A DNA stretch of 36,239 nt from a virus, in IMG/VR virus record IMGVR_UViG_3300006805_000018, positions 1 to 36,239 of that record; one strand, given 5' to 3'. A program made the translations under genes and the position numbers. Position 1 is the stretch's first letter; each line of letters opens with the position of its first letter. This document shows, in pieces, positions 4,574 to 34,237 of the stretch. The notes under the pieces were generated by a model. That model did no database searches, had not been told where the DNA came from, and was given only the letters and a program-made list of their open reading frames with translations.

Positions 4574-4717
4574 ATGATTAAACTTATCTGCTGAATTATC
4601 CAATTTGTATCATGATTATCAACTGTAGATATGGGTAACAAAATATGATGGATATTTGTATGAACATGATTATTCTTTATAATACTTTCAATTCTTGAGA
4701 TTAATCACAGTAGCTAA
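4574..4717 (+). CDS. Small membrane protein
   Basis: 47 residues in code 25, with one or two hydrophobic segments (residues about 3-15 and 24-41). The frame depends on reading five or more TGA codons as Gly. Another ATG at 4564 lies in a different frame. The leader is TATTTATTATTTATTATT. No family is recognised; it is close in style to the preceding gene. Confidence 0.5.
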
Positions 4718-4761
4718 TATGAAGTTAGATAACCGACTAGTATAATAACTGGTCTATATCT

Positions 4762-4843
4762 GGTAACGAGTAGTAGTTGGATGCTGTCCTAGCTGTACAC
4801 TAGGAGTCGAGAGACAGAGGTGGTTCGAATCCATCCGTTGCCA
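4762..4843 (+). tRNA. tRNA-Tyr (GUA)
   Basis: A class II tRNA. The 7-bp acceptor stem is GGTAACG/CGTTGCC (one wobble). A short D-arm follows (AGTA/TGCT with GG in the loop). The 5-bp anticodon stem CCTAG/CTAGG holds the loop CTGTACA with anticodon GTA. A long variable arm and a T-arm with TTCGAAT come next. The discriminator base is A and the CCA end is not encoded. The long variable arm fits bacterial tRNA-Tyr. The gene sits between small membrane-protein genes and a secreted enzyme. It decodes UAU/UAC, not UGA, so it is not the tRNA that supports the recoded stop. A 6-bp hairpin (AGACTA/TAGTCT) follows it. Confidence 0.88.
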
Positions 4844-4901
4844 TATATAGACTACGTTGTTAGTCTGACCCATTATGGGATATTTATTCTTAATCTTATA
4901 G

Positions 4902-26134: not shown

Positions 26135-27457
26135 CTATAGTGATTTTGATCGGTTTGGTTGTGATATAATTACTTGTTTCTTTTTACCTATTCACAGTAG
26201 TGATGAATAATTAACAGCTAAATATCTAAATGCATCAGCTCAATGAGATGATCGGTCATGTTCTGGATGATCTTTGAATATCTTTCTTTTCTCATCATAT
26301 TCTTTATGATATTGTCACAAACATCTATAAATGTATTCTGCTTTGTCCTTATTAATCCATAGATTTTGAAACATTGCTCTTGCTTGATCTATTCAATCCA
26401 TTATTCATAATCTAGGTGTTATCTTTATATTCTCTAATCATTTATTTCTCATTGTTTCTACTCTTGATACTCATGTTGTCAACTCTCTAGCTTCTGCATC
26501 ATGTGGTAGATAGTGGTTTCAATAGTTATAGCCTTTATCTTTTAGTTGTCTGATATAATAATCCATTCACTCTCAGCTAGATTCTAAATAGTCTATAATC
26601 CTTACTTCTTTACCAAAGATCTGAGCAAATATAATAGCTGTAGCATCTGATATTCACAAGTCCCAGAATGTATGTACATCTAAAGCAGGATCATAAGGAA
26701 TAGAACAGAATCTATTTTCCTCGTCCATCTTTTTGAGGTTACTAGAGTAGTAGGCTCATTGGACACTTGCATCAAAACTACAGTAGTATTCCTGTAACCA
26801 TAAATCATAATCCATTCACATATCAAGCTCTTCTTGTAGATATTCCTTTGAGATAATTGGGTTTCAATCCTCTCTACAAGTATCATCGACTGTTAATAGA
26901 CTTACTTCTCGCTTTGGGTTATCTTTAGCCAACATAAATAGATCATATCCATGATTACGTCATCTAGGTGTATAATTGAATCAAGCCCATCATCAGTTCT
27001 CTGCTAAGATAGGTCTAATAAGATCCCATGCTCTCGGATTAGATAGGGAGTATTCAGAAAACTGTACTCATATAGGATTAGATCAGACAAGTCTATCAAT
27101 CTGTCATAATTCAGTACCTACGATCTGTATAATAGATCAATTGATCATTTCGATCTTCATTTGTTGTTGATCTTTTCTTACTGTGATTTCTTCGGGGATA
27201 TGATCTATGTATCTAAATCAATTAGCATCCATTCAATCCCATATAGCTTTTCTTGCTTGTGATTGTGTTGGGAAGATATAGAAATATAATCATGGAGTTT
27301 TCCATGCTTTATGTATCATATTATTTCGATCATCTCTATCCTTTCAAGCTCTACGATGCCAGACCTTTATAACTCTTTTGATTCAATTCTCTCTAGCTTT
27401 CCATACAGGCAATTGATATGATCTTGGTTTATATTTATGTGGGATATATAATTCCAT
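26135..27457 (-). CDS. terL: Terminase large subunit
   Basis: 440 residues in code 25. The ATPase domain comes first: an adenine-binding Q at residue 15 (S-Y-Q-L-P-V-W), a Walker A-type V-W-H-R-R-A-G-K-D (residues 32-40, with G38 coded by TGA), F-P-T-Q-S-Q-A-R-K near 62-70, and a Walker B-like G-V-Q-F-S-E-Y-S near 130-137. The RNase H-like nuclease domain follows, with T-F-W-D-L-G-I-S-D-A-T near 263-273 (first catalytic Asp), L-P-H-D-A-E-A near 318 and H-G-A-D-A-F-R-Y near 415. It packages DNA into the prohead through the portal. The start overlaps the small terminase stop (TAATG). Confidence 0.92.
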
Positions 27458-30405: not shown

Positions 30406-30966
30406 TTAAATCTGACTTAGCAATATTTCATATAGTGCTTTGAGTTCGAACTCCTTTGGCTTATTATTCTCGCTTAATGCTATTCTTTTTAGTTCTTCTA
30501 CATCTACTCACTCGCTTTTAAGTTTTGCTTCAAACTCAATAGGTTTTCAGTTTCACGAGAATTTAGCATTACAGCAGTAGAATCATTGAGGTCTTGTGTT
30601 GTTTTCGTTTCGTCTTAACGATCGTTTAGTTCTAGTTATGTAGTGTCAGCATCATATATGATCTCTACCTCAACAAGTATAACATACTAATCAATATTTT
30701 CATCTTATATATTTTGATCGTAATTCATCTAGTTTCTCTACTCGGTTTATCTTTTTAGGTTTCAATGCTTTACCCTGTGTCTTTCTTTCTTGGTTTTCTC
30801 ACCATTTTATTGAGTCTCTTTTTGCTCTATCAATATCTCTTTGTTTCTTGATCTCCAGTAGTTCTTGATTTTTAATTTCAATCTTTTTGTATTTCAAATC
30901 AATAGCGTATAGCTTTTGTTTGATCTTTTGATCTACTTTGATTTGTATTTTATCAGATATTTTCAT
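30406..30966 (-). CDS. NinG/Rap-like recombination nuclease
   Basis: 186 residues in code 25. The first 75 residues are a charged coiled coil. The core reads C-Y-T-C-G-G-R-D-H-I-G-C-G-H-Y-I-T-R, then N-N-T-R-P-Q-G-F-Y-C-C-N-A-K-F-S-G-N-G-K-P-I-E-F. This matches the C-x-x-C-G...C-G-H-Y...N...C-x-x-C-N...S-G-N pattern of NinG (lambda Rap), a Holliday-junction-cleaving HNH-like nuclease. Its promoter (30972-30999) places the transcript start almost at the ATG, so the mRNA may be leaderless. It is the first gene of the long - strand unit; its end overlaps an AGTCAGATT element. Confidence 0.8.
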
Positions 30967-31186
30967 ACCCTATTGTAATCCAAAGTTTTATAATTGCAAT
31001 AGATTTTTACAAATAGGTATTGTATTTTTATTATTTATCATTATAGTGTATGCACAACCAATCGTAAACCTTTACTATAAGTTGGTAATGAGTAGAGGAG
31101 CGGTTGGCGGATTACTAGAGTTCGTGAGCTGATTGATTAAAAGACCAAACTATTTTAATCATAGACGATGCCTAACTTGTCTTTAA
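30938..31186 (+). CDS. Possible small membrane protein, divergent to the NinG-like gene
   Basis: 82 residues if started at the ATG at 30938, but that start lies inside the NinG-like gene and its promoter, so the true start is uncertain. The credible part is a membrane helix (I-G-I-V-F-L-L-F-I-I-I-V-Y-A) followed by a basic tail (S-R-G-A-V-G-G-L-L-E-F-V-S-G-L-I-K-R-P-N), reading one TGA as Gly. An ATG at 31090 would leave only 32 residues. The end is followed by a strong terminator at 31217-31265. Confidence 0.35.
30972..31009 (-). promoter_or_regulatory. Promoter of the long - strand unit
   Basis: On the - strand the -35 box is TTGCAA (30994-30999), the spacer 16 bp, and the -10 box TACAAT (30972-30977). 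Initiation 6-7 nt later would fall on or next to the ATG of the NinG-like gene. The upstream AAAAATCTATTGCAATTATAAAA matches the upstream block of the promoters at 3078 and 35594, so these three are probably co-regulated although they face different gene groups. Confidence 0.7.
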
Positions 31187-31216
31187 TTCTAGGATCGGAC
31201 AAGTAAATAATTTGTT

Positions 31217-31265
31217 AGTCCCCATACCGAACTCCGAAAGGAATCGCACCAGGTGGGGCTTTTTT
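31217..31265 (+). terminator. Intrinsic terminator with a branched stem
   Basis: AGTCCCCA...TGGGGCT closes a stem (one bulged T) with an inner TCC/GGA hairpin capped by a GAAA tetraloop, followed by six T. A further stem just upstream pairs CTAAC-TTGTC with GACAA and GTTAG (31172-31216 region). It may simply end the + strand membrane-protein transcript, or be the end of a short structured RNA. The loop segment CCCCATACCGAACTC resembles loop C of 5S rRNA. Confidence 0.75.
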
Positions 31266-31270
31266 ATTAC

Positions 31271-31298
31271 TTGATTTTTTATAATTTATCGTTATATT
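31271..31298 (+). promoter_or_regulatory. Promoter of a candidate small RNA
   Basis: TTGATT (31271-31276), a 16-bp spacer, and TATATT (31293-31298). It starts 6 nt after the terminator at 31265 and faces a gene-free structured stretch that ends in another terminator. The start site would be about 31305. Confidence 0.6.
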
Positions 31299-31304
31299 AT
31301 ATTC

Positions 31305-31434
31305 ACTGATCGACCAAGCCTCTCCACGATGCTTAAAGAGGGAATCCTGAATTAACAGGTGAGCGGGAAGTCATGACACCATACGATACTTATTGTTAAT
31401 ACCCTGTACGCTGTAAAGTTACGCAGGGTTTTTT
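31305..31434 (+). ncRNA. Candidate small RNA with its own promoter and terminator
   Basis: About 130 nt. Upstream is a promoter with a 16-bp spacer and downstream an intrinsic terminator. Inside are CCTCT/AGAGG (31319-31341), CCTG/CAGG (31346-31359) and the palindrome GTCATGAC. The longest + strand open frames are under 10 codons, so it does not look like an mRNA. The opposite strand has one 56-codon frame in code 25 across the region, which I regard as chance. I do not recognise an RNA family. Its place just upstream of the replication initiator leader suggests a control RNA. Confidence 0.55.
31401..31434 (+). terminator. Intrinsic terminator of the candidate small RNA
   Basis: ACCCTG (31401-31406) pairs with CAGGGT (31424-31429); an outer U-run of six T starts at 31429. 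The loop can pair further. Stem strength and U-run are typical of a full terminator. Confidence 0.8.
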
Positions 31435-31446
31435 GATATAAAAATT

Positions 31447-31463
31447 AAAAAGTCTGACTTTTT
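31447..31463. promoter_or_regulatory. Perfect AAAAAGTC-T-GACTTTTT palindrome, operator candidate
   Basis: A 17-bp perfect palindrome centred on AGTC-T-GACT, the symmetrical form of the element seen at many gene boundaries. It lies 13 bp upstream of the -35 box of the promoter at 31477, a position suited to an activator or repressor. It could also form a weak hairpin. Confidence 0.55.
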
Positions 31464-31476
31464 TTTGATTTTGGTC

Positions 31477-31504
31477 TTGATTTTTTTATTTTTTTTCTTA
31501 TACT
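31477..31504 (+). promoter_or_regulatory. Promoter of the replication unit
   Basis: TTGATT (31477-31482), a 16-bp T-rich spacer, and TATACT (31499-31504). The start site would be about 31511, giving a leader of about 110 nt before the initiator ATG at 31623. The same -35 box and spacer length are used by the promoter at 31271. Confidence 0.65.
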
Positions 31505-31510
31505 CTTTTT

Positions 31511-31622
31511 ATCTTTCCAACGATAGTCGAAAGTCACCCTCCAACAATTACATTTATAAATAAGGACGTGGTACTATCATCTGGGAGGGTGAGCCACGTT
31601 TTTATTTATATCTGAAGTTGTA
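31511..31622 (+). promoter_or_regulatory. Attenuator-like leader with overlapping long stems
   Basis: A perfect 9-bp pair TCACCCTCC (31534-31542) with GGAGGGTGA (31584-31592) interlocks with a perfect 6-bp pair ACGTGG (31566-31571) with CCACGT (31594-31599). The second pair is followed by TTTTT and is a good terminator. GGAGGGTGA lies in the loop of that terminator, so the two stems form either a pseudoknot or alternative terminator and antiterminator folds. The leader precedes the replication initiator gene by 20 nt, so it could switch replication genes on or off. No known riboswitch class is recognised. A stand-alone RNA of about 93 nt is the alternative. Confidence 0.6.
31566..31603 (+). 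terminator. Terminator hairpin in the replication-unit leader
   Basis: ACGTGG/CCACGT stem with a 22-nt loop and a five-T run, 20 nt before the initiator ATG. The loop contains the second half of the 9-bp inverted repeat, so terminator formation would be affected by pairing upstream. Confidence 0.7.
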
Positions 31623-32306
31623 ATGACCTGACGAATTAAGATCCATAGGAAGATCACAGAGCGAGAACGATACACAAACTGAAATGTAGTCAGGTTATTT
31701 TTTCATTGTTTATTAAAAGCAAACCATGCTGATAAGAATTGGCAGTGAATAAATATAGATAGGTGAAGTTTTATAACTAGTATTGAGCATTTAGCAATAG
31801 AACTAAAACTATCACAACAACAAATAAGAACAGCGTTAACTAAGTTAGAAAACACATGAGAATTGGTGAAGAAATCAACAAACAAATATACGCTAATAAC
31901 ACTAGTTAAATACAGTGATTACAACGATTGAGACAACGAAGATAACAAACAAATAACAAACCAACAACAAACAAATAACAAACAAATAACAACAACTAAG
32001 AATGATAAGAATAGTAAGAATGATAAGAACAATAATTTCTTATCTATTGAGGAGGTTATTGAAACTCGAAACTGAATTGATTGATTTAAGAAAACAATGA
32101 AGATCACAAAAGAAATAAAAAAAGAACGAGCAAGAGTAGTAAAAGAATATACAGTTGAGGAATTTGAGTATGCAGTAGATCAATATACACAAGACACGAA
32201 AAATAGGGCAAAAACAAATGATCCAAAATGATATGATAAACATAGGTTTACGTTCTACGAGTTTATAAAGCAATCTAATTGATTACAAAAACGAGTAAAT
32301 AAATAA
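31623..32306 (+). CDS. Replication initiator / replisome organiser protein
   Basis: 227 residues in code 25. Residues 1-50 follow the pattern I-K-I-H-R-K-I...N-G-N-V-V-R-L-F-F-H-C-L-L-K-A-N-H-A-D-K-N-W-Q-G-I typical of phage replication initiators of the DnaD/replisome-organiser type. The winged helix follows (F-I-T-S-I-E-H-L-A-I-E-L-K-L-S-Q-Q-Q-I-R-T-A-L, residues about 57-79). Residues about 110-140 are an N/Q/T/K/D linker. The C-terminus (I-E-E-V-I-E-T-R-N-G-I-D-G-F-K-K) may be a helicase-loading tail. The start at 31623 is required for the conserved N-terminus. The first 75 nt also hold a 9-bp hairpin and T6 that look like a terminator. The next gene encodes the primase-helicase. Confidence 0.8.
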
Positions 32307-32326: not shown

Positions 32327-34237
32327 ATGGAACTAAAAGATTTTATAAAAACATACCCAAACTTCAAAGACTGCACAATCCAGACTTTTGACGATAGATC
32401 AAAGGATCAATCACTTGCGAGAAAGTTTGCTGTTGATTGAGTAGACCGATCACTAATTAAAACACTAAATGATTCTGGTGCTGGTGTGTTTTTTTCTGTA
32501 AATTCTATGCAACACTGAACAAGATCAAAAAGTACAGTAACTAATCTAAATGCTTGGATTGTAGAGTGCGATGATTTGCCGAAAGAAAATCAAATGAACT
32601 TGATTAATAATGCACCAATCAAGCCATCTTGTGTTATAGAGAGTAACAAGTCGTACCATATTTACTATTTCGCAGAAGATGCTACAAATGAAAACTGGGA
32701 GAGGGTGAATAGATGATTGCGTGAGTATTATCATTGAGATCAAGCAATATGTAGTGATACAGCAAGAGTGTTAAGACTGCCATGAACATATCATAACAAG
32801 TGAGAACCATACAAGATAACTTGTTTGTATTGTGATGATGTAAGATATAATGAGAGCGACATGATGACAGCATTTTCATATTCCGATCCAATAAAAGAAC
32901 ACCAAGAAATAAAAAAGATTGTAGTAACTAAGGCAAGAGATATATGGGAGCTTATGAGTATGCAGTCTAGTAGATATATGCTTGACAGATTAAGTTGATC
33001 AAGACTAGTAAGATGAGAGAGAATTGAATATAAAAAGAATAGCAATTGATCTGAACAAATACGAGTTAATGGTGAAAGCACTTGAGCGTGGATTGATCAT
33101 AATGATAAGATTTGATCTGCAAAAGATGGATGACCTACATGGATACAATGGTGTCAGTTCTACTGAAACAGTAAATGAGATATTGCAAGATGGTTTACTG
33201 AGTTTTGTGACGACCTTATACCCGAAGAGTTTAATAGATCAATACAGATAAAAGAAATTGAAAAGATCGAGAAAAAAGAACAAGAGGAAAAGCTTGAATT
33301 TGAGAGAGGAACAAAACTAAAACATATATCACAGGCAGATAGGATTATGAGGTGATTTCATGAGCTTATTGACACAAATCCGCAAAAGATAATGAAATGG
33401 TGACGGAATGAATGGGATGGTTTCTTGTGAGGCATATATGGTTGAAAAGTATATCTTATTTGAGCAGACACATGAGTTGGTAAGACTACATTTGTCAATC
33501 AGATAGCTAATAACTTATCTAGTGCTGGTGTGAGAGTTACAAGATATTCATTAGAGGATAGATTAGAAGATAATGCTAAAGAGGATATATTCTATACAAC
33601 AAATCAGCGTAGGGTACAAAAATGAAAAAACAAAATAGAGTGGATAAAGTTTATCAATTGAGAATATACACATTCATGATGAGAAAACTTTGATCAAGAT
33701 ATACTCGATGATATAATAGAGTCAGCTGAGGAATTATCACAAAATCAGATCACCGACTTAGATAAAGACAAAGATGTTACTATTGATGATATGGTTGCGT
33801 TGATGAGCGAGGAATGTGACAGAGGGACAAGAGTTTTTTTTATAGATCATCTCCACTACTTCCAGTTCGACAACAATCAGACAAGGATGGATCTACAGAT
33901 TGAAAATGCAATGAAAGCAATAAACGAGATAGCAAGAAAAAGAGATGTAGCGGTGTTTATTATTGCACACTATAATTGATCTATATGAGCATGAAGACCG
34001 ACACTAAATTCATTTAAGTGATCTACTGGTATCAAACAGATTGCAAACATAGTCATACAGATTGAGAGAGATGACGACACAGATATAACTGAGTTTACAG
34101 TATCAAAAATTAGATGACCAATAAAAAAGAGAACCATTGAGGCTAGATTTGACATTACAACATACTCATATAGTTTCACAAAAAGCATAGAGCAAAAGCA
34201 AAAGGAAAAGGAAAACAAAGCGAAATTCTGAAAATAA
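32327..34237 (+). CDS. Primase-helicase fusion (AEP-type primase plus DnaB-like helicase)
   Basis: 636 residues in code 25. The N-terminal part resembles an archaeo-eukaryotic primase/PrimPol: E-C-D-D-L near residue 80 (metal-binding acidic pair), S-N-K-S-Y-H-I-Y-Y near 107, and T-A-R-V-L-R-L-P-G-T-Y-H-N-K near 145. A middle helical linker follows. The C-terminal RecA-like domain has Walker A G-A-D-T-G-V-G-K-T-T near 378-387, in which the first two glycines are TGA, and Walker B V-F-F-I-D-H-L near 502. I-I-A-H-Y-N-G, then S-G/S-T-G-I-K-Q-I-A-N match motif H3 of DnaB-type helicases. It would unwind and prime phage DNA, recruited by the initiator encoded just upstream. Confidence 0.88.

What the first reader, a model, noticed from the sequence alone, without database searches (positions are those of the whole stretch)
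31511..31622. Interlocked stems form a possible attenuator or riboswitch before the replication initiator
A perfect 9-bp inverted repeat and a perfect 6-bp terminator stem interleave (order 1-2-1'-2'), with TTTTT after the last arm and the initiator ATG 20 nt later. Either a pseudoknot or a terminator/antiterminator pair is forced by the geometry. No known class matches in my reading.
Basis: partly seen in the sequence, partly recalled or inferred. Interest (0 to 1): 0.75.

Follow-up and report, generated by a model that had tools for sequence, protein, structure and literature searches.

The report
Folding RNA switch before phage replication gene
Just upstream of the gene that starts DNA replication in a virus of bacteria with a rare genetic code, the RNA can fold in mutually exclusive ways, one of which should stop transcription; the same layout with different sequences recurs before the equivalent gene in unrelated phages, so it is probably an on/off switch for phage replication.

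Summary
A 9-bp repeat (31534-31542/31584-31592) interleaves with a terminator stem (31566-31571/31594-31599) before the DnaD-like helicase-loader gene (ATG 31623). 0 of 2000 shuffles and no other place in 3.6 Mb of held DNA (both strands) show this. Folding growing transcripts gives the 9-bp helix first, then the terminator.

No homologue of this sequence was found, so covariation could not be tested on it. But leaders of 3-4 other lineages of the same loader family show the same order 1-2-1'-2' 8-26 nt before the ATG (chance expectation 0.04-0.08 for all 81 loci). In Bacteroidota-type phages this led to a strict kissing-loop RNA family: 25 pairs, 99% paired, 18 with changes on both sides, no Rfam match. 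It is also present in Cellulophaga phage phi18:3 and Flavobacterium phage FL-1. The window's leader fails that family's covariance model, so it is not a shown member. Best reading: an attenuator working like pT181/pIP501 rep leaders. The next RNA upstream is an orphan abiF-type RNA.

The parts
31477..31504 (+). promoter-like site P3 (TTGATT, 16 nt, TATACT); predicted transcript start about 31511
   Evidence: consensus match only
31513..31533 (+). hairpin 1, CTTTC[CAACGATAGTC]GAAAG; its loop holds A = GATAGT (31522-31527)
   Evidence: MFE of the leader; loop-loop match p 0.015
31534..31542 (+). B, 5' arm of the 9-bp helix (TCACCCTCC)
31555..31572 (+). 5' arm of the long terminator-like hairpin; GC-rich core C = ACGTGG at 31566-31571
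31573..31578 (+). A' = ACTATC, complement of A, in the loop of the terminator hairpin
31584..31592 (+). B', 3' arm of the 9-bp helix (GGAGGGTGA), in the loop of the terminator hairpin
31593..31610 (+). 3' arm of the terminator-like hairpin; core C' = CCACGT at 31594-31599, followed by the U-rich tract
31544..31621 (+). full extent of the competing hairpin, ending 1 nt before the ATG (would bury the ribosome-binding region)
   Evidence: -32.9 kcal/mol, z -7.8
31623..32306 (+). DnaD-like helicase loader / replication initiator (227 aa, genetic code 25)
   Evidence: phrog_2514 E 1.2e-26; start codon agrees with homologues
32327..34237 (+). DnaB-like replicative helicase with RepB-primase-like N-terminus, same operon

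Best explanation
The 112-nt stretch is the 5' leader of the phage's replication operon, and it works as a cis-acting attenuator. Transcription starts near 31511. As RNA emerges, B pairs first with part of C, then with B' (9 bp), so the hairpin's 5' arm is left unpaired. Once C' and the U-tract emerge, the long C/C' hairpin can displace B/B', terminating transcription about 20 nt before the start codon or, on read-through RNA, burying the ribosome-binding region. What keeps the RNA in the B/B' state long enough (RNA polymerase pausing or speed, a phage or host protein, or an RNA or small-molecule ligand) decides how much loader and helicase is made. Shown: the sequence elements, their rarity, the computed order of folds, and the recurrence of the layout at homologous genes. 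Inferred: transcript start, termination, exchange between states, and any trigger.
For: Elements and rarity. Prefix folding from 31511: B/B' has probability 0.92-0.96 when the RNA ends at 31592-31596, C/C' 0.97-1.00 from 31604 onwards. No other gene lies between the promoter-like site and the ATG, and intrinsic terminators are few in this genome. The same B-C-B'-C' order, with C' ending 8-26 nt before the loader's start codon, occurs in L215/L217, L222 and L239 (B of 7-8 nt) and in L187/L189/L191/L192/L193 (6 nt): expected 0.04 (k>=7) or 0.08 (k>=6) for all 81 loci, so 3-4 lineages besides the window. Precedent: repC of pT181 and repR of pIP501 are controlled by a terminator just before the start codon whose 5' arm is pre-empted by an upstream leader segment (PMC5703833), and IncIalpha repZ by a leader pseudoknot (PMC8383071).
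Against: No homologue of this leader was found in IMG/VR by exact-pattern or neighbouring-gene scans, so there is no covariation on it. Most loader homologues have no such leader because the gene sits inside an operon. Leader-bearing loaders are scattered in the loader tree. The B/B' state is not energetically exceptional, and the final fold overwhelmingly favours the hairpin, so without a trigger the leader would simply terminate. The descriptor ranges were chosen after seeing some examples.
Confidence: 0.48

Rival explanations
1. It is an independent small RNA gene, the third of three tandem promoter-RNA-terminator units in this intergenic region. The middle unit carries an abiF-type RNA motif, i.e. 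the family of RNA antitoxins that bind AbiF toxins. The RNA acts in trans (for instance as a decoy for a host defence protein), and the replication operon is reached by read-through, as in RCd22-abiF.
For: Three promoter-like sites with the same 16-nt spacer (31020-31047, 31271-31298, 31477-31504) and three T-tailed hairpins ending about 31260, 31428 and 31598. abiF motif at 31314-31341: 25.3 bits, E 4.7e-4 for the 36-kb record. The size (about 95 nt) and the terminator before a gene resemble RCd22, which terminates before abiF and acts in trans (PMC12373285).
Against: The unit has no match to abiF or any other Rfam family. It lies only 18 nt from the ATG and no other gene or start site lies between. 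Similar layouts elsewhere sit before loader genes.
Confidence: 0.25
2. It is an ordinary intrinsic terminator, partly bidirectional, insulating the replication operon from upstream transcription; the 9-bp repeat is accidental.
For: The hairpin is by far the most stable fold, and in the full leader its probability is about 1. The B/B'-containing prefix is not unusually stable for its composition.
Against: The perfect 9-mer between loop and upstream RNA has p 0.0009-0.0015, and the layout recurs before homologous genes far above expectation. A pure insulator 18 nt from the ATG would leave the operon without an evident promoter, apart from a weak 9/12 site inside the hairpin (31553-31580).
Confidence: 0.14
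3. It is a DNA element: part of the replication origin or a binding site of the initiator, the inverted repeats acting as DNA.
For: The region is the minimum of cumulative GC skew, is very T-rich just upstream (31440-31512), and adjoins the initiator gene.
Against: The GC skew changes sign together with gene direction here. There are no iterons. The interleaved order and the T-tract after the hairpin fit RNA better, and in the related leaders the elements sit directly behind promoter-like sites.
Confidence: 0.08

Closest known systems
pT181 repC / pIP501 repR leader attenuators (PMC5703833)
   Same: Leader of a replication-initiator gene; terminator-like hairpin just before the start codon that also buries the ribosome-binding region; an upstream leader segment pairs with its parts and pre-empts it.
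   Different: Plasmids, controlled by a counter-transcribed RNA; no promoter-like site for an antisense RNA was seen on the minus strand of this leader. Here the loop (B') rather than the 5' arm is the main partner.
IncIalpha repZ activator pseudoknot (PMC8383071)
   Same: Long-range leader pairing upstream of a replication-initiator gene decides its expression.
   Different: That pseudoknot activates translation and is blocked by antisense Inc RNA; there is no terminator just before the gene.
Kissing-loop leader RNA of Bacteroidota-type phages described here (L255, L256, L258, L259/L263, L222, phi18:3, FL-1; no Rfam match)
   Same: B-C-B'-C' order; B' in the loop of a terminator-type hairpin; promoter-like site directly upstream; often at the head of the operon with the DnaD-like loader.
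   Different: The strict family has B inside hairpin 1 with a conserved ANTATA, an inner stem D around B', and a UGAA/GGAU internal loop; the window has none of these and scores at background with its covariance model.
RCd22-AbiF of C. difficile phage phi027 (PMC12373285)
   Same: Promoter, structured RNA, terminator, then a gene reached by read-through; an abiF motif lies in the neighbouring unit of the window.
   Different: RCd22 is an RNA antitoxin for the toxin gene it precedes; there is no Abi_2 gene in the window.

Membership tests
pT181/pIP501-type rep leader attenuator | terminator-like hairpin immediately before the initiator start codon | tested here: met
   hairpin 31555-31610 (31544-31621 extended), ATG 31623
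pT181/pIP501-type rep leader attenuator | alternative pairing with an upstream leader segment that pre-empts the terminator | tested here: met
   by computation only: B/C then B/B' dominate in shorter transcripts, C/C' in longer ones
pT181/pIP501-type rep leader attenuator | counter-transcribed RNA that triggers termination | tested here: inconclusive
   no sigma-70-like promoter on the minus strand between 31069 and 31750; host promoter rules unknown
pT181/pIP501-type rep leader attenuator | regulated termination in the cell | not testable with these tools
   needs transcription assays
strict kissing-loop leader RNA of Bacteroidota-type phages (model R1) | match to covariance model R1 | tested here: not met
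   strict members used to build R1 score 74-93 bits and FL-1, not used, 29.6 bits; the leader 31511-31622 has no match above 2.7 bits
strict kissing-loop leader RNA of Bacteroidota-type phages (model R1) | B in the loop of a hairpin and inner stem D flanking B' | tested here: not met
   descriptor with H1 and D finds the strict members but not the window
strict kissing-loop leader RNA of Bacteroidota-type phages (model R1) | interleaved order B-C-B'-C' with terminator-type C/C' 8-26 nt before the loader ATG (shared by the looser group) | tested here: met
classical H-type pseudoknot | connecting loops long enough to cross both stems | tested here: inconclusive
   B to C 11-23 nt, C to B' 12 nt, B' to C' 1 nt; possible only with another stacking order or a shortened B/B'; no 3D modelling was done
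known riboswitch or leader class (Rfam 15) | match at gathering score, or credible weak match | tested here: not met

The most novel reading that the evidence does not exclude
The window's leader is a far-diverged member of a widespread, uncatalogued family of kissing-loop or pseudoknot leader RNAs that sense a signal and control entry into the replication operon of tailed phages, spanning phages of Bacteroidota and of code-25 Absconditabacteria/Gracilibacteria.
Probability: 0.27. Interest if true: 0.76.

Novelty: new variant of a known kind. Interest (0 to 1): 0.55.

Why it matters
How phages time expression of their replication proteins is mostly explained by protein repressors and antiterminators; RNA-only attenuators before initiators are known mainly from plasmids. 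A recurring leader architecture before DnaD-like loaders, with a strongly covarying kissing-loop family in Bacteroidota-type phages, would be a plasmid-like copy control in phages that can be tested in cultured systems (Cellulophaga phi18:3, Flavobacterium FL-1). It would also be an early example of regulatory RNA in a phage of code-25 bacteria.

Tried and rejected
Searches for the window's own relatives: loader, helicase, NinG and terminase scans of IMG/VR and one genome-collection scan gave only distant relatives without the leader. The DNA pattern GGACGTGG-gap-GGGAGGGTGA hit 32 other contigs, all chance matches. An unrestricted B-C-B'-C' descriptor is not enriched genome-wide (704 hits in 4.7 Mb against 314 in 2.4 Mb shuffled), so only position before the loader ATG, regular spacing, and the independent stems H1 and D are informative. 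Prophage loaders of Bacteroidota genomes are embedded in operons and lack the leader; model R1 finds nothing in 395 such genomes. abiF membership of the leader itself was rejected. The DUF2800 RNA match in the first unit is not significant (15.4 bits, E 3.4). B' looks like a Shine-Dalgarno sequence, but 31 nt from the ATG, and the other leaders do not share this; treated as coincidence.

Full report
SETTING. The window is a 36,239-base virus record that reads in genetic code 25 (TGA = Gly): coding density 0.89 against 0.36 with the standard code. By established knowledge its host is therefore an Absconditabacteria/SR1 or Gracilibacteria bacterium (inference; phages of these groups are described in PMC10746230). 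The finding lies in a 656-base gap between a NinG-like gene (30406-30966, minus strand) and the operon of a DnaD-like helicase loader (31623-32306) and a DnaB-like helicase (32327-34237). The cumulative GC skew has its minimum there.

OBSERVATION. Both stems are exact and at the stated places. Under fixed criteria the interleaved pair occurs in 0/2000 shuffles of the 112-nt stretch, 0/2000 of the whole intergenic region and 0/60 of the window, and nowhere else in 3.65 Mb (both strands) of natural DNA held at that point. The terminator stem is the core of an 18-bp helix with its U-tract paired, extended to 31544/31621, -32.9 kcal/mol, z -7.8. The perfect 9-mer between the hairpin loop and the RNA upstream has p 0.0009, although the energy of that fold alone is unremarkable (z -1.35).

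FOLDING ORDER. From a promoter-like site at 31477-31504 the transcript would start near 31511. Folding successive prefixes gives (i) RNA ending at 31576-31588: B paired imperfectly with C, with A/A' around it from about 31580 (P(A/A') 0.66-0.95); (ii) 31592-31599: B/B' with P 0.92-0.96; (iii) from 31604: C/C' with P 0.97-1.00. Thermodynamics thus gives a relay of mutually exclusive folds that ends in the terminator. Kinetics and any trigger were not computed.

COMPARISON AT HOMOLOGOUS GENES. No homologue of this leader was found. An alignment of the loader with six homologues (A2) gave 80 more loader loci. Most are inside operons, but several have a gap of about 115-215 nt with a hairpin ending 11-18 nt before the ATG. 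Their leaders have the same order B-C-B'-C' with unrelated sequences: TGGTGG/CCACCA (L187, L189, L191, L192, L193), ATGCAGG/CCTGCAT (L215, L217), GTTCTCAC/GTGAGAAC (L222), ACAACCAC/GTGGTTGT (L239). Across 81 loci (0.97 Mb, both strands) the descriptor is expected 0.04 times (B of 7 or more) or 0.08 times (6 or more) at 8-26 nt before these ATGs. It was observed in 3 and 4 independent lineages besides the window. The length ranges were set after seeing examples, so this is strong but not a pre-registered test. In the loader tree the leader-bearing rows are scattered and the window sits on a long isolated branch, so common descent of the leaders is not shown.

A STRICT RNA FAMILY. A scan of all held DNA for the same order with a T-tract brought out a very regular set: L255, L256, L258, L259, L222 and L185 (Cellulophaga phage phi18:3), with L1 23-26, L2 10-11 and L3 8-9 nt. 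Inspection showed two further stems not used in that scan: hairpin 1, whose loop is B plus ANTATA, and an inner stem D around B', with a UGAA/GGAU internal loop below it. On a gap-free structural alignment (variable linkers removed by hand) 99.3% of cells pair, 18 of 25 pairs have changes on both sides, and 0/500 shuffles reach any of the five measures; sliding partners by 1-3 columns gives 33-44%. H1 (all 5 pairs changed on both sides) and D (3 of 4) are independent of the selection. A seventh member found by DNA similarity, Flavobacterium phage FL-1 (KY421186, 18935-19033), keeps B/B' (CGTCTCAC/GTGAGACG), C and D, with 100% pairing in those three helices. No Rfam family matches the loci of the six. 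It heads the loader operon in phi18:3 (KC821620 3068-3168, before gp007-gp006) but precedes an unknown gene in FL-1, so its use is wider than replication. B and B' sit in hairpin loops, so in this family the kissing and the terminator can coexist.

MEMBERSHIP. The window's leader does not match the covariance model of that family and lacks H1 around B and D around B'. It is filed only as having the same topology and position. Functionally it most resembles pT181 repC and pIP501 repR attenuators (PMC5703833) and, more loosely, the repZ pseudoknot (PMC8383071). The triggering antisense RNA of those systems is not evident here.

NEIGHBOURHOOD. The intergenic region holds three promoter-like/terminator-like units in a row. 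The middle one carries CCAAGCCTCTCCACGATGC, the core of the abiF RNA family (25.3 bits, E 4.7e-4 for the record, below the 37-bit gathering score). The same 19-mer occurs in 53 other IMG/VR contigs, often beside tRNA-like sequence. Only 2 of 43 tested carry an Abi_2 gene, and the window carries none. AbiF is a toxin kept in check by such an RNA (PMC12373285), so orphan copies in phages could be decoy antitoxins; this is inference. It keeps the rival reading alive that the third unit, too, is a trans-acting small RNA.

VERDICT. Real, specific and probably regulatory; mechanism inferred; novelty lies in the variant and in the family it led to.

Noticed in passing
window 31314-31341: Orphan abiF-type RNA (19-nt core exact, 25.3 bits, below the gathering score) with no Abi_2 gene in the record; the same 19-mer in 53 other IMG/VR contigs, often beside tRNA-like sequence, only 2 of 43 tested with an Abi_2 gene. 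Possible decoy antitoxins against AbiF defence.
   Followed up: partly
L255:1127-1223, L256:1870-1967, L258:2678-2774, L259:2714-2811, L263:2714-2811, L222:2901-2998, L185:1144-1244 (phi18:3), L300:2495-2593 (FL-1): New covarying kissing-loop RNA with intrinsic terminator in Bacteroidota-type phages, with no Rfam match.
   Followed up: partly
window 31006-31605: Three promoter-like/terminator-like units in a row on the + strand within one intergenic region.
   Followed up: partly
window 31165-31283: Weak match to DUF2800 RNA (15.4 bits, E 3.4) that includes the identical GGACAAGTAAATAA; not significant.
   Followed up: no
window 31165, 31326, 31383, 31520: The pentamer ACGAT, part of the abiF core, occurs four times in the 656-base gap, where about 0.6 are expected.
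   Followed up: no
L192:1742: A second B-C-B'-C' element with T-tract (GTGGTCG/CGACCAC) 6 nt before a 173-aa gene, in a contig that also has the element before its loader.
   Followed up: no
window 4761-4844: tRNA-Tyr (gta) gene with an upstream promoter-like site (TTGTAT-16-TATAAT, 4656-4683) in a code-25 phage.
   Followed up: no
window 26135-27457: Terminase large subunit 42-54% identical to those of standard-code phages; only one of the 80 best-matching or first three relatives (IMGVR_UViG_3300000227_000201) clearly uses code 25 as well.
   Followed up: partly
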